The translations under genes were made by a program, and so were the position numbers. A DNA stretch of 46,657 bases from Oscillibacter sp. (lineage in GTDB: Bacteria; Bacillota; Clostridia; Oscillospirales; Oscillospiraceae), in the NCBI GenBank assembly GCA_014799925.1, contig JAAVHC010000033.1:1-46657 (forward strand). The letters are read 5' to 3'. Position 1 is the stretch's first letter. Each line of letters starts with the position of its first letter. The notes under the pieces were generated by a model. It was not told the DNA's origin. It did not search any database and worked only from the letters and a program-made list of their open reading frames with translations. Shown here one piece after another: positions 36,285-45,858 of this stretch.

Positions 36285-37418
36285 TCAGCGCTGCAAGGCG
36301 TAAATGCCCTCCTCGGATAACCCGGCATACGCGTCCCAAACCTCTGAAAACACGTTCTCCAATGCGTATTGCTCCGCTTTTTCCCGGCCATTCCCGCCTA
36401 AATGCCGCTGCAAATCTTCCGACTCCAGCAGCCGCCTGATTTGCTTCGCACAGGCCTGTTCATCGCCGTAAGGGTACAACAGTCCCGTCTCACCGTCCGC
36501 GATCAGGTCGCTGTGCCCCTTCACATCGCTTGCAACCACTGGAAGCCCGGCATGCATCGCCTCCATGATATTGAACGGCAGGCCCTCGATCCTGCTGGCG
36601 GACGCCGCCGCGTCAGCCATATCGTACCACTGGCCCATATCCTTTACATGCCCCGGGAACCGCACCCTGTCCGCCACGCCCAGACGTTGGACCTGCGCCA
36701 GGCACTCATCCTGCAAAGCCCCGTCTCCAGCCAATACCAGCACAACATGTTCCGGCAGCTGCGCCATGGCCCGGATGAGCACCGCCTGACTTTTCCGGGC
36801 GGAAAACTCCGCCGCATAGAGCAGCACAAAAGCGTTGTCCGGGATGTTCAGTTCCGTTCTCAGCTGCCGCCGCGTGTCAGCTGACGCCGTGTGCAAACGC
36901 GAGAAATCTACCCCAACGCCAGGGATATGTATCACGTTTCGACCCAATTTGTATTGGACCGCCGCCTCGTAGTCCCATCGGTTCATTGTCAGCACCACGT
37001 CCGTCACGGGCGCCATCCACCGCTCTGCCGCCAGCAGCACAGTCCGCTTCAGCCAGGGCGTCCCGTCGTCAAACAGATATCCATGGACCATATTGGCCAC
37101 CGGCGGACGCTCCCGCAGCCCCCGCAGCGCCAGCCGGGTGAAAAACGCGGCCAGGGACGTGTGCGTGGTGATGAGGCTGTACCGCTCTTCTTTTATTTTT
37201 TCGCGCAGCGCGGCCGCCGCCCTGAAATTTCCGGGAGACCGCATGGATTTCTCCAGGGGAAAGGGAATCACCTCATCCGCGTAAGGAATATCCATGGCCA
37301 TGCCCCCGCAGGCTGCGTGGACGGTCCAGCCCTCTTCCCGGAATTTGCGCAGATAGGGCAGATGGAAATTCACGATGTGGGAATATGTAGAGGCCGTAAA
37401 CAGGACCTTACGATCTAT
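36285..37418 (-). CDS. GT4-type glycosyltransferase of the EPS locus
   Basis: A GT-B glycosyltransferase (family 1/4) that adds a sugar to the growing lipid-linked exopolysaccharide. The C-terminal domain has the donor-binding motifs ASASRIEGLPFNIMEAMHAGLPVVAS (ExxxxxxxE). The N-terminal strand and loop RKVLFTASTYSHIVNFHLPYLRKF are fully encoded upstream of the first canonical start (GTG at 37373). The only codon in the right place is ATA at 37418, with GGAGGGGACGACC before it. I annotate from there (377 residues); the GTG version would lose the first beta strand. It follows the priming transferase by 15 bases. Confidence 0.85.
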   Translation of the reverse strand: MDRKVLFTASTYSHIVNFHLPYLRKFREEGWTVHAACGGMAMDIPYADEVIPFPLEKSMRSPGNFRAAAALREKIKEERYSLITTHTSLAAFFTRLALRGLRERPPVANMVHGYLFDDGTPWLKRTVLLAAERWMAPVTDVVLTMNRWDYEAAVQYKLGRNVIHIPGVGVDFSRLHTASADTRRQLRTELNIPDNAFVLLYAAEFSARKSQAVLIRAMAQLPEHVVLVLAGDGALQDECLAQVQRLGVADRVRFPGHVKDMGQWYDMADAAASASRIEGLPFNIMEAMHAGLPVVASDVKGHSDLIADGETGLLYPYGDEQACAKQIRRLLESEDLQRHLGGNGREKAEQYALENVFSEVWDAYAGLSEEGIYALQR

Positions 37419-37433: not shown

Positions 37434-38825
37434 TCAGTCCAGCGCCTCGCTGTTCATAAACTTTCCGCGAAACACGGTGGTTAACAGGATCTCGATATCG
37501 AACAGCAGGCTCCAGTGCTCGATGTAATACACGTCATGCTCCACCCGGGCCTTGATGGACGTATCTCCCCGCAGTCCGTTTACCTGGGCCCATCCCGTGA
37601 TTCCGGGACGCACCTGGTGCTTCACCATATACAGAGGCACCTCCTGTTTGAACTGTTCTACATAATAGGGGATCTCCGGCCTGGGCCCCACCAGGCTCAT
37701 CTCCCCCTTCAGCACGTTGAAGAACTGGGGGAGCTCGTCCAGGGAGCACTTGCGCATGAACGCACCGAATTTTGTCTTTCTGCTGTCATGGTCTGTGCTC
37801 CACTGTGTGTCCTGTCCGCTGTTCACCCGCATGGAACGGAATTTGTACATAAAAAACCGCTTTTTGTTCCGTCCTACCCGCTCCTGCTTGAATATAATCG
37901 GCCCCGGCGAGGACAGTCTTACTCCGATCACGCATACCAGCATAACGGGGGAGGACAAGAGGATCAGCAGCAGCGATCCCATGATATCCATGGCCCGCTT
38001 GCAAAACGCGTTGGCCCAGTTATCCAGCGGGATACGCCGGAAATTCAGCATCGGAATGCCCCCCACCTCGTCGAATTGGGGATTGGAGGGCATGTATTTC
38101 GCATAAGATGGAATAATAGACAGCTTCGTCCCCGTCTTCTCACAGGCTTCGATGATCTCGGGCATCCGTCCGTAGTCCTCCGGGGTGATGGCGCAGACGG
38201 CCTCGTCCGGACGCTTGCTTTCCAGGAGACTCTCCAGCGCCTCATAGCCTCCCAGCCGCTTCCGCTTGCCCATCCTCTTCTCCCGCTGGGATGACACATA
38301 ACCGATCACCGTGTAGCCCAGCTCCCGGTCCTTATCCACCGTGTTCCAATAGGTCCGCGCCATCTCCCCGCCGCCGATCAGAAGCACGTGCTTCTGGTTA
38401 TAGCCCTTTTGCCGGAAATAGTGCAGCACGCGGCGCAGTACCGCCCGCTTGACGCTCAGCAGCCCCGTGCTCAGGAAAAACCAGATAATCAGGGTGAGCC
38501 GGGAGTAGTCAATGTAATGCTGTACGAACAGGAAGCTGAGCAGCGCCGCCATCACCAGGAGATTGGCCAGCCAGAGGCGTTCCAGCTCCTGGCGCAGCCG
38601 GCCCCTCCGGAAGGACTGATACAGCCCGAAGGCGGCGTAGATAAACAGTTGGACAAGGGTAAGCAGTATCCCGAGGAGCAGATATTGGTACAGCTCCACC
38701 GAGATGTACCCGCCGGGCAGGATATAAAAGCGTATCCAGAAAGCGACAGGCAGCGACAGATACAGAATTGCGCCGTCGCTGAGTACATGCAGGCGGTTGA
38801 GCAGCTTTTGATTTTCTTTGATCAT
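37434..38825 (-). CDS. Polyprenyl-phosphate sugar phosphotransferase (EPS priming)
   Basis: Initiates exopolysaccharide repeat synthesis by moving a sugar-1-phosphate onto undecaprenyl phosphate. The 463-residue protein has four N-terminal membrane helices, a nucleotide-binding-like domain (HVLLIGGGEMARTYWNTVDK), then a membrane anchor (IMGSLLLILLSSPVMLVCVIG) and the bacterial sugar-transferase domain: PIIFKQERVGRNKKRFFMYKFRSM, SLDELPQFFNVLKGEMSLVGPRPE and RPGITGWAQVNG. This is the WcaJ/WbaP type. Sugar specificity cannot be read. Confidence 0.94.
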   Translation of the reverse strand: MIKENQKLLNRLHVLSDGAILYLSLPVAFWIRFYILPGGYISVELYQYLLLGILLTLVQLFIYAAFGLYQSFRRGRLRQELERLWLANLLVMAALLSFLFVQHYIDYSRLTLIIWFFLSTGLLSVKRAVLRRVLHYFRQKGYNQKHVLLIGGGEMARTYWNTVDKDRELGYTVIGYVSSQREKRMGKRKRLGGYEALESLLESKRPDEAVCAITPEDYGRMPEIIEACEKTGTKLSIIPSYAKYMPSNPQFDEVGGIPMLNFRRIPLDNWANAFCKRAMDIMGSLLLILLSSPVMLVCVIGVRLSSPGPIIFKQERVGRNKKRFFMYKFRSMRVNSGQDTQWSTDHDSRKTKFGAFMRKCSLDELPQFFNVLKGEMSLVGPRPEIPYYVEQFKQEVPLYMVKHQVRPGITGWAQVNGLRGDTSIKARVEHDVYYIEHWSLLFDIEILLTTVFRGKFMNSEALD

Positions 38826-38843: not shown

Positions 38844-41174
38844 TTATAAAAGTATCCGGTCTATGAACGCCTGCGCCTGTTTGTTCAGGACGATATGGCC
38901 CATATTTTCCTCGTTCCAGGCGTCCAGCAGCCCCACAATATGGGCGACGCCCGCCCGGTACTCCGCCGTATCCTGCTCATACTCCTCCAGAAGATCAAAC
39001 GCCCTCTGCCATACGGTGGAATCTGAGGAAACATAGGCCACATACCGCTCCGTCATCTCCAGTCCCTTCTCCGTGCGCCCCGTGTCCAGATAGTATTCCG
39101 CCAGGTAGATGGGGATGGTATTGGAGTCGATTTTCTCCAGCCGGGCGGCATATTTGTCCGCCTGACGCAGGGCATCCTCGTCCGCCTCTGTACCGGTGAC
39201 CCACGCCACATAGGTGAGCATATGGTCCGCTTTCTCAAAGGGGTCCAGCGCAGCGGCCCGCTCCAGCTGCTCCAGACTCGACGCCGAGGCCGTCATGCTC
39301 TGCGCCGCCATATTGCACCCCAGCAGCACCCCAAACACCCCCAGCAGAGCGCATGCTGCCAGCGCCAGTCCGTTCCGGGCGGCTTTTTTTTCTGCCCAGG
39401 CGGGGATGGGGAGGGCGTCCCCGCAGCACAGGGAAATGGAGGCGAACACGCCGAAGAGGAAGGGAAGGGAGGCGAAATAGGAGAATATTCCTTCTACCAT
39501 GGCATGACCGGCCATAAAGGCCAGCGCCGCGCCCAGAGCCGGAGCCAGGGGATGTTTCCGCCCCCGCCAGATCGAGGCCGCGGACACGATCAGCAGGCCC
39601 AGGAACAGGATCAGCCCCACGACCCCTGTCTCCACCAGAGTCTGGATATAGTGATTGTGGGCATATTTGGTGTAGTAGTAGAAGGACTGCACGCTGGTCA
39701 CGCCGTTTGCATAGGCGCCAAGGCCCAGGCCGAATATCGGGCTGCGGCGGAACAGCTTGAGACCGTCCTCAAAGAATACGAACCGCTGGATGGCGTTCTG
39801 GTTGGCCCGCAGTCCCTGGAGCCGGTTCGCGATAAAGCCGGGGAGCAGGCGGTAACGCAGCGGGACGCTTCCCGAGCCGTTCTCTCCCGCAAAGCCCGCC
39901 GATTCCAGCCGCGTCTCTGTGCGCGCCGTAAATTGAAACCACACGACCAGGCTGTCCTCCGGTACGGTGAACGCCGCCTGAGAAAGTGCGCCTCTGTACA
40001 GCTCCGAGCTGGTATGCATCATGGTGTCCGACCGGTTCTGACTCTGGATGACGACAAGAGGGTCGCCGTCTGTCTCCGCCTCCAGGGTATAGGTCCCCGG
40101 CGCCGGATAGGCGGAGCGGCGCAGGGAATCCCCTGCCTGGAGGGTTACGCCGGCGGTGAAATTGCAGGCGGCGGCAATAAATATCACCAGGACCGCCAGG
40201 ATGGCGGCAGCCAGGAGAAGCACCGTCTTTCCGTATCCGGCCAGTTTTACCGCCAGCCGCCGCCCTGCCAGCAGGTCCAGGGCGCACAGCGCCGCCGCGC
40301 CGCCGGCCGCGCACAGCAGGGGAATGGGCCGCACCCCGTCCCAGGCAGTCATGGAGGTCAGGGAGATGGGAAAGGCCGCCAGCATGGTTACGGCCAGCGT
40401 CTCGACCATGAGGATCAGCATACTTGTCCGCTGGTCCCTCCCCGTCAGCGCCAGAAGCACCAGAAAAGCCGGAACAATCATGGCGCACGCGCCCATACTG
40501 AAGGTCAGTATAAAGGCCAGGGCGTTGATAAACAGGCAAACCAGATGGGCCGCCCGTTCTCCTTTTTTTTCGGAGGTGACGACCAGCCCCAGCGCCAGCA
40601 GAACGCCGATCCCCATACATGCCGCGAACGCGTTGGGATAAATAAAGACGGAGGTCATGCGGGCCCCGTCCTCCACCACCTTCAGGTCCATATAGTCGGG
40701 AGTAAACCAGCTCAGGACCGTCAGCACCGGCGTGCTGATCCATCGGGTGGAAAGCAGATCAATGCTGACCAGGCCCGCCACAGCCGCGCTGCCGACCAGA
40801 ACGGACGCCGCCTTCCGCTCCGGTTTTTCTTTCCCGATGAATGCAAGGAGAAGCAGCGCCATACAAAACGCGGCGACCACCTTCAGCAGTTCGTTCAGCG
40901 CGAATTTTCCCGAGATCGCGTACAAGGCGCTCACCCCGTCCATCAGGACCACCAGACCCAGCGCCAGAACGGGCGGATTGAGCCGGTCCCTCAGTCTGTC
41001 GTAGAACAGAAACGCCGCAGACAGGGTCAGCGGGACCAGCAGCATCGCCGCGGCCTTGACGGTGGCCGCCGAGCTCAGGCAGACCGCCAGGAAAAACATT
41101 GCCGCGCCCAGTACAATGTCCAGCTGTTGGAAACCGGACCATGCCAGGGAGGAAGACCTGGGTTTGCGGGTCAT
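38844..41174 (-). CDS. O-antigen ligase/polymerase-like (Wzy_C) membrane protein
   Basis: A 776-residue polytopic protein of the O-antigen ligase/polymerase superfamily, with about 12 membrane helices and a large extracellular loop (about residues 345-460). The signature YAHNHYIQTLVETGVVGLILFLGLL (Wzy_C) follows. The C-terminal 130 residues have two TPR-like helix pairs (LEQLERAAALDPFEKADHMLT, LAEYYLDTGRTEKGLEMTERY). It probably polymerises or ligates the polysaccharide made by this locus. Starts 133 bases after the secreted-protein gene stop. Confidence 0.85.
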   Translation of the reverse strand: MTRKPRSSSLAWSGFQQLDIVLGAAMFFLAVCLSSAATVKAAAMLLVPLTLSAAFLFYDRLRDRLNPPVLALGLVVLMDGVSALYAISGKFALNELLKVVAAFCMALLLLAFIGKEKPERKAASVLVGSAAVAGLVSIDLLSTRWISTPVLTVLSWFTPDYMDLKVVEDGARMTSVFIYPNAFAACMGIGVLLALGLVVTSEKKGERAAHLVCLFINALAFILTFSMGACAMIVPAFLVLLALTGRDQRTSMLILMVETLAVTMLAAFPISLTSMTAWDGVRPIPLLCAAGGAAALCALDLLAGRRLAVKLAGYGKTVLLLAAAILAVLVIFIAAACNFTAGVTLQAGDSLRRSAYPAPGTYTLEAETDGDPLVVIQSQNRSDTMMHTSSELYRGALSQAAFTVPEDSLVVWFQFTARTETRLESAGFAGENGSGSVPLRYRLLPGFIANRLQGLRANQNAIQRFVFFEDGLKLFRRSPIFGLGLGAYANGVTSVQSFYYYTKYAHNHYIQTLVETGVVGLILFLGLLIVSAASIWRGRKHPLAPALGAALAFMAGHAMVEGIFSYFASLPFLFGVFASISLCCGDALPIPAWAEKKAARNGLALAACALLGVFGVLLGCNMAAQSMTASASSLEQLERAAALDPFEKADHMLTYVAWVTGTEADEDALRQADKYAARLEKIDSNTIPIYLAEYYLDTGRTEKGLEMTERYVAYVSSDSTVWQRAFDLLEEYEQDTAEYRAGVAHIVGLLDAWNEENMGHIVLNKQAQAFIDRILL

Positions 41175-41307: not shown

Positions 41308-41910
41308 TTAGGGATTAACCTGGAAGCCCTCGGCATCCTTCAGCTCCTTGCCGTTCACCCAGAGGGAAGCGGCAACGCCGTTCTCGGTAGCCTCAGCCGT
41401 GACCTTCACGATGCCGGAAGTCCCAGCCTTGGCGGTGATCAGGTCGTTGGAGATGGAGATGGTGGCCACAGAGCTCTCAATGGTCAGGTCCGCGCTGGTT
41501 TTCTTGGCCAGGGAAGTCAGGGCCCTGGCGGGGAGGCAGACATTGATCTTGCCCGCGTCCTCGCCGTTGATTACCAGCGTGATCTTGCCGTCCACAACAG
41601 CGTCGGCCAGCTTCTTCACAGCCGCATCCGTCAGCATGACGGTAGCGACGTCATCCGTCACGGTCGCATTGATGACCGCCGCGCCTTCCTCGACCGCGAT
41701 CTTGTCAGCGCCCAGCGCCGCCGCAGCGGTGGAGGTGTTGGAATCAATGGGAAGGAACACACTGGTGTCCTTGTTCCCGCTGTAGGGGTTGTTGCCATAG
41801 GGGTTGTTGCCTTCGCTGGTTCCGGCGGCGCTAACGGCCAGAGCGGTGGCGGGCACCATGGCCAGGACCATGACCAGGACCAGCAGTTTGGCAATGAATT
41901 GCTTTTTCAT
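41308..41910 (-). CDS. Secreted Ig/beta-rich protein of the EPS locus
   Basis: A 200-residue exported protein. Residues 1-30 are a signal peptide (KKQFIAKLLVLVMVLAMVPATALAVSAAG). A short repeat GNNPYGNNPYSGN follows, then a beta-rich domain (INATVTDDVATVMLTDAAVKKL, KITLVINGEDAGKI, ASLWVNGKEL) reminiscent of domains in S-layer and SLH surface proteins, but without SLH repeats. The start at 41910 has AGGAGT upstream; the longer frame to 42042 has no homology. Role unknown; it lies inside the EPS locus and may be a surface or matrix protein. Confidence 0.7.
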   Translation of the reverse strand: MKKQFIAKLLVLVMVLAMVPATALAVSAAGTSEGNNPYGNNPYSGNKDTSVFLPIDSNTSTAAAALGADKIAVEEGAAVINATVTDDVATVMLTDAAVKKLADAVVDGKITLVINGEDAGKINVCLPARALTSLAKKTSADLTIESSVATISISNDLITAKAGTSGIVKVTAEATENGVAASLWVNGKELKDAEGFQVNP

Positions 41911-42922: not shown

Positions 42923-44236
42923 TTATTGCAGGATATCCCGGATATTTTCCTGGATACGCTGGGACAGCTGCTCATACTGCGTCCGTTCCTCACGGCTGAA
43001 GCCGGACAGCCGGGCCGCTTCAAAATCCTTCAGGGCGTTTTCCAATTCCTCCCGTACCGCTTCAGCGGCGGGAGGAAACGAGATTTGCAGCGTCTTTTCC
43101 CGGCTGTCCGGGATATGCGTTTCCGTGACGGAAACCAGCCCCTTGCCCGCCAGCCGCTGAAGCTGCATGGATAAGCTGCCCTTCGATAGTCCTGTGAAGT
43201 CTGCGAGGGCCTTCCGGGTACTGGCTCCGGACTGGCACAGCTGCAGCAGCAGACGTACTTCTTGAAGCAACAGGCCGTTTTTCTGCGCGACAGGCTCCAG
43301 ATAATAGTCCAGCAGCTTCCGTTCCCGGAACTGATCGAACAGGATGCCCTCCCCAATTAACATGCCGGGACAGACCTGGATGCGTTCATTGCCCAGCTTT
43401 GTGGAAACAAGAGGAAGAGGCAGCGCCGCACCGTCCTGCGCGGCGTCGAACAGGAAGCGGTAGATCTTCAGACGGTGCTTTTCGTATTCGGCCTCATCCA
43501 AAACCGACTTGTAAAACTGCTGATAATAATCAAACAGCATCAGCTTTGTGCGTACCGTTTTGGAAATGCTGATCCCCTGGTTTACCAGAGAGCCTTTGGT
43601 TTTTACATAGTAGTAAACCGGCACCTGCAGCGCAAAGAAGCGCCGGGCATGGCGGATATATTCCAGATTGAACAGAAAGTCCTCGCACCAACTGACCGCC
43701 GGGTCCATCCGCAGATGATGCTCCTCGATGATATCCCTCCGATACAGCTTGTTCCACAGTACGCCATAGTAGAAATCGGCGGGGTTTTCCATCATATAGG
43801 CGACATACTCCTCGCGGGTGAGGGGGCCGTCTTTATCAATGTCGCCTTTCGGAGAAACCCGCTCCCCCACAACGCGGAAAAAGTCGGAGATGACCATATC
43901 GCATTGGTTCTCTTCCGCCGCCCGGACGAGGAGCTTGGTGGCGTTGGGCGTGATCCAGTCGTCGGCGTCCAGAAATTGCAGGTAGCGGCCCTGAGCGATG
44001 GATATGGCCTGGTTCCGGGTGTCGGATACGCCGGAGTTGGCTTTGTGGATGACCTTGACGCGGCTGTCCTGGCGCGCAAAAGTGTCGCAGATAGCGCCGG
44101 AAGCATCCGCGCTGCCGTCGTCCGCCAGGATCAGCTGCAGGTCCGTGTATTCCTGACTGAGGACGCTTTCCACACAACGGCGCAGAGTCGCCTCCGCGTT
44201 GTAAACAGGGACAATGATACTGACATAGGGTTCCAT
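42923..44236 (-). CDS. GT2 glycosyltransferase fused to a MarR-type winged helix
   Basis: A single 437-residue frame. Residues 1-235 are a GT-A (GT2) domain: VSIIVPVYNAEATLRRCVES, LILADDGSADAS, LDADDWITPNAT and AVSWCEDFLFN. Residues about 305-437 have the full MarR pattern: KLLDYYLEPVAQKNGLLLQE, VRLLLQLCQSGASTRKALAD, FTGLSKGSLSMQLQRLAGKG, then the wing (TETHIPDSREKTLQISF) and the dimerisation helix ending GFSREERTQYEQLSQRIQEN. No stop or frameshift separates them. The fusion suggests a transferase that also binds DNA. It has its own strong promoter overlapped by an inverted repeat (44275-44310), and it is next to EPS genes. I know of no described function for this fusion. Confidence 0.92.
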   Translation of the reverse strand: MEPYVSIIVPVYNAEATLRRCVESVLSQEYTDLQLILADDGSADASGAICDTFARQDSRVKVIHKANSGVSDTRNQAISIAQGRYLQFLDADDWITPNATKLLVRAAEENQCDMVISDFFRVVGERVSPKGDIDKDGPLTREEYVAYMMENPADFYYGVLWNKLYRRDIIEEHHLRMDPAVSWCEDFLFNLEYIRHARRFFALQVPVYYYVKTKGSLVNQGISISKTVRTKLMLFDYYQQFYKSVLDEAEYEKHRLKIYRFLFDAAQDGAALPLPLVSTKLGNERIQVCPGMLIGEGILFDQFRERKLLDYYLEPVAQKNGLLLQEVRLLLQLCQSGASTRKALADFTGLSKGSLSMQLQRLAGKGLVSVTETHIPDSREKTLQISFPPAAEAVREELENALKDFEAARLSGFSREERTQYEQLSQRIQENIRDILQ

Positions 44237-44269: not shown

Positions 44270-44299
44270 ATTATAACCTTATCTCTCCACTTTTGTCAA
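44270..44299 (-). promoter_or_regulatory. Promoter of the GT2-MarR gene
   Basis: On the minus strand, perfect TTGACA (44299-44294), an 18-base spacer and perfect TATAAT (44275-44270), 34 bases before the ATG. Confidence 0.8.
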
Positions 44300-44331: not shown

Positions 44332-45611
44332 TTAAAGTTTAGCAAAAAGGATAGCAAGAAAGCGGTCGGGATCAAGAGCAGCCGAGAAGCGTTTTTTCTT
44401 CATACTGACCCTGGGACCGAAATCAGCGTGTTTGCAAAGAGCAAGAGCAGTTTTGCGGAGGATATTCAGGTTGAGAGGGGACATATCTTTTCTGGCTTTG
44501 GAAGAATCTTCGTCAAAAACAATATCCAAAGCCCAGTGGAGTTGATTTTCGATAGACCAATGTTTGCGCACAGCATAAGAAAACCGTTCAATATCTGTTA
44601 AAGAAGTAATGAAAAAGCGAGTATCCATACTTGTTGTGCCATTTTTAGTCACAGTTGAGCATACGGAACCAACCGCTTTCAGTCCAGCCCATTCGCTGCA
44701 CTCCGGCAGCCAGGACAGGTCGGTCAGCAGGCGGTATTCTCGCTTTTCTATTCTTCCATGGTCCTTATCTCTTGTGACATGGCAAGGCAAATCCTTACTG
44801 AAATCTTGGAAATACAGAGAAATATTCTCCAGCAAAGATGGTTGGTTTCCTTTTAATCCAATCACATAGTCCGCTTTGCCGTCCTGGATTTTTTGGACAA
44901 TGGTCTTTTGGCAGCTCATGGCATCTGCGGTCACTATGCTCCCCTCCACGTTAAGGGAATCCAATAGTTCCGGAACAGCCGTGATTTCGTTGGATTTTTC
45001 CTCTGTTACCAGTTCTCCCAGTACCAGTTGGTGTTCTGCCACAAACGCACTGACCACATGATAGGCCTTATGACTTTTGCTTTTGCTGCCACATATTGTT
45101 TTTCCATCTATCGCGATTACAGTTCCTTTTTCCCAATGGCAGCCCAACCAATCATACAGGCATTCTGACAACGTTTCCGGGTTGATTCGTTCAAATACTC
45201 GCCGAAATGTGTCGCTGTCTGGTATTCCATGTGGCAACTCCAGGAATTTCCGCAGCCATTCCTCTCTTAGAGCAGTTCCCAGAAATAATGAGAAAAAAGG
45301 AAGCGAGGGCAGGGAACGCAGGGCAAGGCGGAGGACACAGACGGGCTGACGCCCGTCAAGGACAACAACGCGGCCATGCGTTTTCTGGACCGCTGAACTT
45401 TTCTCAGTATTTTTGGGTGCTGCTCTAGCTCCCCGAATGCCTCCATATCCGTGAAGTCTTCTCCGTTGCACAGCAGGGTACACAGTCCGATGATGATTAT
45501 GTCTTCCAGCTTATGGAGAATGTGCCCGCCTACTGTCCTTCGTGGATCCTCCATCTCGCCAATGCTGTTTTTAAACTCCTCTAAATGAGCAAAATTAAAA
45601 ACTGCACAAAA
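44332..45611 (-). pseudogene. ISAs1 transposase interrupted by a MITE
   Basis: The DDE transposase of the ISAs1 family is readable in two pieces. The first (about 45611-45428) reads HLEEFKNSIGEMEDPRRTVG and LCTLLCNGEDFTDMEAFGEL. The second (45267-44332) reads REEWLRKFLELPHGIPDSDT, GTVIAIDGKTICGSK (catalytic Asp), SIVTADAMSCQKTIV, KADYVIGLKGNQP and HWSIENQLHWALDIVFDEDS to the end. Between them a 156-bp element plus a TA duplication shifts the frame. Removing it rejoins AFGEL with REEW in frame, so the gene was intact before the insertion. The true N terminus is unclear. Confidence 0.88.
45270..45425. mobile_element. 156-bp MITE with TA target duplication
   Basis: Terminal inverted repeats of about 27 bp start GAGCAG at both ends, with 23 of 27 positions identical and a shared TGAGAAAA. 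The element is flanked by TA on both sides (45268-45269, 45426-45427), the duplication made by IS630/Tc1-mariner type transposases. It has no coding capacity. Its interior has ACGGGC/GCCCGT and resembles 33450-33480. Confidence 0.8.
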
Positions 45612-45654
45612 GGGTTCTAAAACGACGAATAGCGGCAGACAAAGACAGCGATGC

Positions 45655-45858
45655 ATGCTGAACGAGCTTGTCCAGCGCATTGAGGTCCATCAGGCGGAGA
45701 AGGTCGATGGCGTTTGGGTACAGCGACTCACGATCCACTATAACTGTGTCGGAGCGATTACCATTCCAGAGAACTTGCCGCTCCCCATGCCGGACATCAC
45801 TGTGAATACCCGCAAGGGCGTATATGTCAGCTACCAGCCTGACAGCAAGGTGGGGTAG
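45655..45858 (+). pseudogene. Serine recombinase C-terminal fragment
   Basis: A 67-residue fragment matching the end of large serine recombinases of conjugative elements (DUF4368 region): MLNELVQRIEVHQAEKVDGV then VQRLTIHYNCVGAITIPENL and the C-terminal PDITVNTRKGVYVSYQPDS. The catalytic N-terminal parts are missing; the upstream sequence is the ISAs1 remnant, so the gene was cut by that event. Confidence 0.75.

What the first reader, a model, noticed from the sequence alone, without database searches (positions are those of the whole stretch)
42923..44236. Glycosyltransferase fused to a complete MarR-type DNA-binding domain
One uninterrupted frame has a GT2 transferase domain followed by a full MarR winged helix, including recognition helix (GLSKGSLSMQLQRLAG), wing and C-terminal dimerisation helix. 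A polysaccharide enzyme that is also a transcription factor would let sugar-donor or substrate state feed directly back on EPS gene expression. Seen: the two domain patterns in one ORF. Known: MarR proteins bind palindromes and respond to ligands. Inferred: coupling of catalysis and regulation.
Basis: partly seen in the sequence, partly recalled or inferred. Interest (0 to 1): 0.78.

Follow-up and report, generated by a model that had tools for sequence, protein, structure and literature searches.

The report
Glycosyltransferase carrying a MarR-fold tail
A bacterial sugar-transferring enzyme really is fused to a domain shaped like a gene repressor, and the fusion recurs in related gut-type bacteria, but across the family the domain's DNA-reading surface is not preserved as in true repressors, so it more likely serves the enzyme than a fixed gene switch.

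Summary
One 437-codon frame (42923-44236, minus) holds a GT2/GT-A glycosyltransferase (1-275) and a complete MarR fold (298-437). The 50 listed rows of each of two PDB fold comparisons of the tail are MarR-type proteins. It is no assembly artefact: full-length copies occur in at least 17 of 400 genomes of the window's family (own included), 34 of 348 of a second family, and two named strains. All 67 fused proteins compared keep the acidic active-site residues.

Neighbours are not conserved, a 92%-identical relative is not beside EPS genes, and no excess of palindromes lies upstream. In the nearest stand-alone MarRs the recognition helix is more conserved than the scaffold (15 of 15 disjoint pairs); in the fusion it is less conserved in 19 of 26. 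The wing D-x-R motif is in 11 of 67 against 29 of 39. Yet the domain is under purifying selection and its head is basic; the window's own copy keeps D-S-R.

Best reading: a MarR fold exapted as a dimerising, possibly polyanion-binding module of the enzyme (about 0.5). A lineage-specific enzyme-regulator remains possible (about 0.25). Function is untested.

The parts
42923..44236 (-). GT2-MarR fusion gene, 437 aa, stop included
   Evidence: open frame; full-length homologues in other genomes
43412..44236 (-). GT2 / GT-A glycosyltransferase domain, residues 1-275; D40, D44, D90, D92, D93, E185, D186 the same in 67 of 67 fused proteins
43346..43411 (-). linker, residues 276-297
   Evidence: pLDDT under 50 at 267-276; most sister proteins without MarR end soon after the position of residue 275
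42926..43345 (-). MarR-fold domain, residues 298-437
   Evidence: MarR_2 above gathering score; fold
43145..43183 (-). helix in recognition-helix position, residues 352-364
   Evidence: secondary structure of the model; variable in the family
43079..43141 (-). wing, residues 366-386
   Evidence: strands 369-374 and 381-386 in the model; highest mean entropy of the stretches compared
44270..44299 (-). promoter-like site TTGACA-18-TATAAT, 12 of 12 matches, upstream of the gene
   Evidence: 1 found; shuffles mean 1.0 for the looser scan; also visible in L001, not in L079 or L028
42850..42870 (-). terminator-like hairpin just downstream of the gene, weak evidence
   Evidence: 3 found in the region, shuffles mean 1.9, sd 1.3

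Best explanation
The gene encodes an apparently active GT2 (GT-A fold) glycosyltransferase whose C-terminal tail is a MarR fold recruited as an accessory module of the enzyme. Shown here by computation: one frame, both folds, invariant acidic active-site residues, a family spread over several families of Firmicutes, purifying selection on both domains, and, compared with stand-alone MarRs, a constraint that lies less on the recognition helix and wing and more on the first helix. Inferred: the MarR part holds two enzyme copies together through its first and last helices, as MarR proteins do (recalled), and the basic heads bind a phosphate-rich partner (an acceptor polymer, the membrane or nucleic acid) without reading a fixed sequence. 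It would then resemble in role, not in fold, the C-terminal modules of teichoic-acid glycosyltransferases (recalled). A conserved operator and feedback on EPS genes are not part of this reading.
For: Full-length fusion in 17 of 400 genomes of the window's family, own genome and one contig-cut copy included, 34 of 348 of family f31, 3 of 25 of the own genus, own included. Recognition helix minus scaffold identity: mean -0.065 in 26 disjoint fused pairs (19 negative, 7 positive) against +0.289 in 15 disjoint stand-alone pairs (15 positive), Mann-Whitney p 7e-7. Wing D-x-R in 11 of 67 fused and 29 of 39 stand-alone; head charge +4.36 against +2.90. First helix: mean pair identity 0.43 in the fused set and 0.21 in the stand-alone set, at overall 0.32 and 0.33. 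MarR-part dN/dS 0.02-0.55 in the 17 of 19 pairs where dS was finite, so still selected. Neighbours not conserved across lineages; no palindrome excess; in the close relatives L002 and L003 the gene overlaps the one before it by 4 bases. A sister group has the same GT without the MarR part.
Against: The window protein itself keeps a rather canonical recognition helix and a D-x-R wing, and scores above Pfam's MarR_2 cut-off. In its own clade of four the recognition helix (0.61) is about as conserved as the four scaffold helices (0.77, 0.68, 0.43, 0.62); in clade L109 it is 0.69 against 0.70, 0.74, 0.58, 0.70. Fast-changing specificity would also give a variable head. No dimer model or ligand evidence was obtained; dimerisation and polyanion binding are inference. 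The stand-alone control was gathered by similarity to one MarR and to the fusion profile, which may favour conserved heads, and it holds two genes twice.
Confidence: 0.5

Rival explanations
1. Trigger enzyme, the first reader's idea made general: the MarR part is a sequence-specific repressor of its own or a few local genes, with an operator and a recognition helix that change quickly from lineage to lineage, and the sugar donor or product modulates binding.
For: Complete MarR fold; basic head; purifying selection; the window gene has its own 12-of-12 promoter and a MarR_2 score above cut-off; most of the 19 loci measured leave 50 bases or more before the gene. Precedent for a glycosyltransferase that also acts on transcription: GmaR of Listeria (PMC9638930, passages read).
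Against: No excess of palindromes upstream; no conserved neighbours to regulate; L002 and L003, two close relatives, overlap the gene before them and L055 starts 3 bases after a called gene, leaving no room for an own operator there; recognition helix less conserved than scaffold in 19 of 26 pairs.
Confidence: 0.25
2. The MarR part binds nucleic acid without sequence preference, holding the enzyme at the nucleoid or modifying a nucleic-acid-bound substrate.
For: Head charge +4.36 on average with wing and helix variable; the MarR protein TcaR is in the PDB in complex with single-stranded DNA and with RNA (entry titles 4kdp, 4ejt).
Against: 8 of 67 fused proteins have a head charge of zero or below; the closest solved folds of the GT part are glycosyltransferases that build or modify surface glycans (their roles partly recalled).
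Confidence: 0.15
3. The MarR part is a relic without function, carried along by the enzyme.
For: Its dN/dS is 2.6-6.2 times that of the GT part in 14 of the 16 pairs where both are finite, it is missing in a sister group of 22 proteins, and the wing is shortened in the three Erysipelotrichaceae proteins.
Against: dN/dS of 0.02-0.55; full-length copies kept across three families and recognisable as MarR in 37 of 37 fused loci; first helix more conserved than in stand-alone MarRs; in the close pairs L004-L006 and L004-L007 the MarR part has the lower dN/dS.
Confidence: 0.1

Closest known systems
GmaR of Listeria monocytogenes (glycosyltransferase and anti-repressor)
   Same: N-terminal glycosyltransferase joined to a C-terminal part that acts on transcription; PDB 22ao matched by the GT part at E 1.2e-5
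   Different: GmaR's C-terminal part is TPR, linker and anti-repressor domains that bind the repressor MogR, not a MarR fold (PMC9638930, passages)
CA_C2195 / DUF4910-HTH_47 and Met-AP2: winged helix as substrate module of an enzyme
   Same: winged helix attached to an enzyme; for CA_C2195, linked by gene neighbourhood to surface carbohydrate, the authors propose a role in substrate recognition and specificity (PMC4000134, abstract and section 8 read)
   Different: circularly permuted winged helix on a metallopeptidase-like domain; no glycosyltransferase
TarP, TarS, RmlT and GalT1 (GT-A glycosyltransferases)
   Different: their C-terminal modules are not MarR folds (recalled; not tested here)
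MarR/SlyA transcription regulators
   Different: fused to an enzyme; recognition helix and wing not conserved across the family
TIGR04176 MarR family EPS-associated regulator
   Same: MarR head, named for EPS
   Different: window tail scores 17.5 bits against a cut-off of 88, so not a member

Membership tests
GT2 glycosyltransferase (GT-A fold) | Pfam Glycos_transf_2 above gathering score | tested here: met
   128.6 bits against 23.3; 21 of 21 scanned members match at E 0.01 or better
GT2 glycosyltransferase (GT-A fold) | acidic donor-site motifs and acidic catalytic residue | tested here: met
   D40, D44, D90, D92, D93, E185, D186 in 67 of 67 fused and 22 of 22 short proteins; their roles are recalled from the family
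GT2 glycosyltransferase (GT-A fold) | transfer of a sugar in vitro | not testable with these tools
   needs an assay
MarR transcription regulators | MarR fold | tested here: met
   (window protein); profile match in 37 of 37 fused loci
MarR transcription regulators | Pfam MarR_2 above gathering score | tested here: met
   window protein 33.3 against 27; in the family only 12 of 21 reach E 0.01
MarR transcription regulators | recognition helix more conserved than scaffold, as in the stand-alone control | tested here: not met
   lower than scaffold in 19 of 26 disjoint fused pairs; higher in 15 of 15 stand-alone pairs. About equal in the window's own clade
MarR transcription regulators | wing D-x-R motif | tested here: inconclusive
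   present in the window protein (D377-S-R379); 11 of 67 in the family, 29 of 39 stand-alone
MarR transcription regulators | palindromic operator near a regulated promoter | tested here: inconclusive
   no palindrome above simulated sequences upstream of the window gene; 12 of 67 at p<=0.05 against 6 of 22 controls (20 simulations each, 160 bases); sites elsewhere not searched
MarR transcription regulators | dimer through first and last helices | not testable with these tools
   only single-chain models available
EPS-cluster regulator | conserved linkage to polysaccharide genes | tested here: not met
   clusters shared by several lineages among 37 fused loci are ABC transporter, response regulator and methyltransferase families; flanking genes of L001 unrelated
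GmaR-type bifunctional glycosyltransferase | TPR and anti-repressor domains after the GT domain | tested here: not met
   C-terminal part is a MarR fold

The most novel reading that the evidence does not exclude
A family of one-protein enzyme-regulators in gut-type Firmicutes: a glycosyltransferase that is itself a MarR repressor whose DNA specificity is being rewired lineage by lineage, so that donor or acceptor occupancy of the enzyme sets expression of a different target in each lineage.
Probability: 0.2. Interest if true: 0.8.

Novelty: new variant of a known kind. Interest (0 to 1): 0.5.

Why it matters
Enzyme-regulator fusions are a clean test of how a repressor fold can be turned into an enzyme part, or an enzyme into a sensor. 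Here a repressor fold sits on a glycosyltransferase in dozens of species, with a sister group that lacks it, so removing or swapping the domain is a direct experiment. It also warns against reading a MarR domain hit as a transcription factor: across the family the domain stays recognisable and its head stays basic on average, but the residues best conserved in related repressors are not kept.

Tried and rejected
Autoregulatory operator: a palindrome scan of 160 bases upstream of 67 fused and 22 short genes (20 first-order simulated sequences each) gave no excess in the fused set. Alignment of upstream DNA within eight clades shows a shared promoter for W and L001 only; L005, L008 and L010 align well, but mostly inside the preceding gene.

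Stand-alone MarR next to the short GT genes, as source of the fusion by gene joining: a profile of the stand-alone MarRs found no frame at E 10 in the ten short-gene stretches (9.5-15 kb each); the nine neighbours of short genes scanned include no MarR.

Own-genome MarR (L027) as control: no match at E 1e-15 in the 60 other genomes, so the L076-like set was used instead.

Direction of the domain change: the best tree puts a 21-member short clade and L032 inside fused ones (3 changes), which would mean two losses, but a tree with all fused proteins together is not rejected (p-AU 0.297). Not decided.

Mobile carriage: 0 of 45 matching plasmid records cover 80% of the query; 1 of 27 matching phage-collection records does, a 4.3-kb unannotated faecal contig; viral contigs gave 46 pattern stretches and no relative.

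Literature: searches gave no paper; two listed 12 (of 15) and 8 papers, and by title and start of abstract none describes this fusion. Only PMC4000134 of these was opened. This covers only the held library. Searches gave nothing used, PMC9638930 was opened (passages).

Limits of the counts: only 5 to 7 candidates per genome were scored, so the numbers of genomes are lower bounds. Rows dropped before the count of 96: repeated fetches and identical proteins, contig-cut copies (L021, L035, L044, L066), the distant L022, L073, L074 and L077, and own-genome paralogues. The pairs share sequences and are not independent. One search printed only the 40 largest clusters.

Full report

It is a family, not an accident. 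Of 22 loci found in other species, 20 hold the full-length fusion, at 44-92% identity, in Oscillospiraceae, Lachnospiraceae and Erysipelotrichaceae by their titles. In whole genomes a match over the length of the model is found in 17 of 400 of the window's family (the own genome and one contig-cut copy among them), 34 of 348 of family f31 (one as two pieces of one frame; f31 is unnamed here), 3 of 25 of the genus (own included), 2 of 391 of a class sample (own included) and 1 of 299, the window's own, of a phylum sample. Except only the 5 to 7 best candidates per genome were scored, so these are lower bounds. The gene is widespread but patchy. A sister group has the same GT without the tail (22 proteins after dropping repeats), with short tails in its place. 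On the GT tree these nest among fused proteins, but a single fused clade is not rejected (p-AU 0.297), so gain and loss cannot be told apart.

The enzyme looks intact. D40, D44, D90, D92, D93, W161, E185 and D186 are the same in 67 of 67 fused proteins. The role of these residues as donor-binding and catalytic positions is recalled from the family, not tested.

The context does not point to EPS. In the window, EPS-type genes lie on the same strand downstream of the gene: a Wzy_C protein at 38844-41174, a sugar transferase at 37434-38825 and a group 1 glycosyltransferase at 36285-37373, with a frame of no known family (41308-41910) between. Elsewhere neighbours include rubrerythrin, DUF4422, a GNAT protein, fructose-bisphosphate aldolase, a prenyltransferase, single-strand binding protein, a base-excision glycosylase, a transglycosylase, CarD and Obg. 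Over 37 fused and ten short loci the clusters shared by several lineages occur in at most six loci and are ABC transporter, response regulator and RNA-methyltransferase-like families, all large families. In the close relatives L002 and L003 the gene overlaps the one before it by 4 bases; in L055 it starts 3 bases after a called gene with a weak GtrA-like match, 23.9 bits against a cut-off of 26.1, which is a possible sugar link in that lineage. Most other loci leave 50 to 214 bases. Upstream palindromes are not in excess: 12 of 67 fused and 6 of 22 short genes at p<=0.05, window gene p 0.75. The window gene does have a perfect TTGACA-18-TATAAT site that is also visible in L001 but not in L079 or L028.

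What selection keeps. The GT part is 48-96% identical to the window's among 24 relatives, the MarR part 22-85%. In 19 close pairs dN/dS of the MarR part lies at 0.02-0.55 where dS was finite (17 of 19); it is 2.6-6.2 times that of the GT part in 14 of 16 pairs with both finite and lower in the other two. The nearest stand-alone MarRs (L076-like, 39 rows, mostly from family f31) serve as control. In them recognition helix and wing are more alike than the scaffold in each of four bands of overall identity; in the fusion they are less alike in each. With disjoint pairs, recognition helix minus scaffold is +0.289 in 15 stand-alone pairs (15 positive) and -0.065 in 26 fused pairs (19 negative, 7 positive); with the wing +0.214 (14 of 15 positive) and -0.125 (22 of 26 negative); Mann-Whitney p 7e-7 and 2e-6. 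Pair identity at the positions of K352 and S356 is 0.80 and 1.00 in all stand-alone rows and 0.22 and 0.20 in the fusion. The head stays basic, +4.36 against +2.90, and the first helix is more conserved than in the stand-alone set, 0.43 against 0.21. The tails are still recognisable: a profile of the stand-alone rows matches 37 of 37 fused loci, from 1.8e-21 down to 0.02. The control was collected by similarity to one MarR and to the fusion profile, which may favour conserved heads; this weakens but in my judgement does not explain a reversal in sign.

Results that cut the other way. The window protein is among the more canonical members: D-S-R in the wing, an LSKGSLS recognition helix, and a MarR_2 score above the cut-off. 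In its own clade of four the recognition helix (0.61) is about as conserved as the scaffold helices (0.77, 0.68, 0.43, 0.62), and the same holds in clade L109. A repressor with a single, fast-moving target would leave much of the same pattern.

How it most likely works. Shown by computation: two folds in one conserved, selected protein, intact acidic GT residues, and a constraint that lies less on the DNA-reading face than in related repressors. Inferred: the tail dimerises the enzyme and offers a basic surface to a phosphate-rich partner. The precedent for a winged helix as a proposed substrate module of a carbohydrate-linked enzyme is CA_C2195 (PMC4000134, abstract and section 8 read); the precedent for a glycosyltransferase that also acts on transcription is GmaR (PMC9638930, passages read). 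I put 0.5 on the accessory-module reading, 0.25 on a lineage-specific enzyme-regulator, 0.15 on non-specific nucleic acid binding and 0.1 on a relic.

Novelty. I found no description of this fusion in the searches made, which cover only the held library. Fusions of winged helices to enzymes are a known kind; the GT2-MarR pairing with a reversed pattern of constraint is a variant of it.

Noticed in passing
window 44332-45680 (-): A DDE_Tnp_1 / DDE_Tnp_1_assoc insertion sequence whose transposase is split over two overlapping frames (44332-45483 and 45267-45680) lies directly upstream of the fusion gene; comparison with L001 suggests that it ends a few bases before the -35 box and leaves the promoter intact. 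No clear terminal repeats were found.
   Followed up: partly
L002 8001-9332 and L003 2786-4123: Two close homologues are 97-100% identical per 60 bases over the first 540 bases of the gene and fall to 57-69% around the head of the MarR part, then rise to about 80%; synonymous divergence is 0.17 in the GT part and 0.63 in the MarR part, which suggests recombination inside the gene.
   Followed up: partly
L013 7247-8713: This fused protein is 489 aa long, with about 50 extra residues in the wing of the MarR part.
   Followed up: no
GT part of 67 fused, 22 short and 7 other GT2 proteins: Mean net charge of the GT part is -10.7 in fused and -10.3 in other GT2 proteins but +1.5 in the sister proteins that lack the MarR tail; some of these have very basic short tails (L040, L042, L043).
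   Followed up: partly
H10, MT837809.1 (phage collection) 6208-7050: Faecal record with a GT part 58% identical to the window's over 2-283 only; whether a MarR part follows was not examined.
   Followed up: no
L055 7113-7643: A called 176-aa gene with a weak GtrA/DPMS transmembrane match (below cut-off) lies 3 bases before the fusion gene in this lineage, a possible link to sugar-lipid handling.
   Followed up: partly
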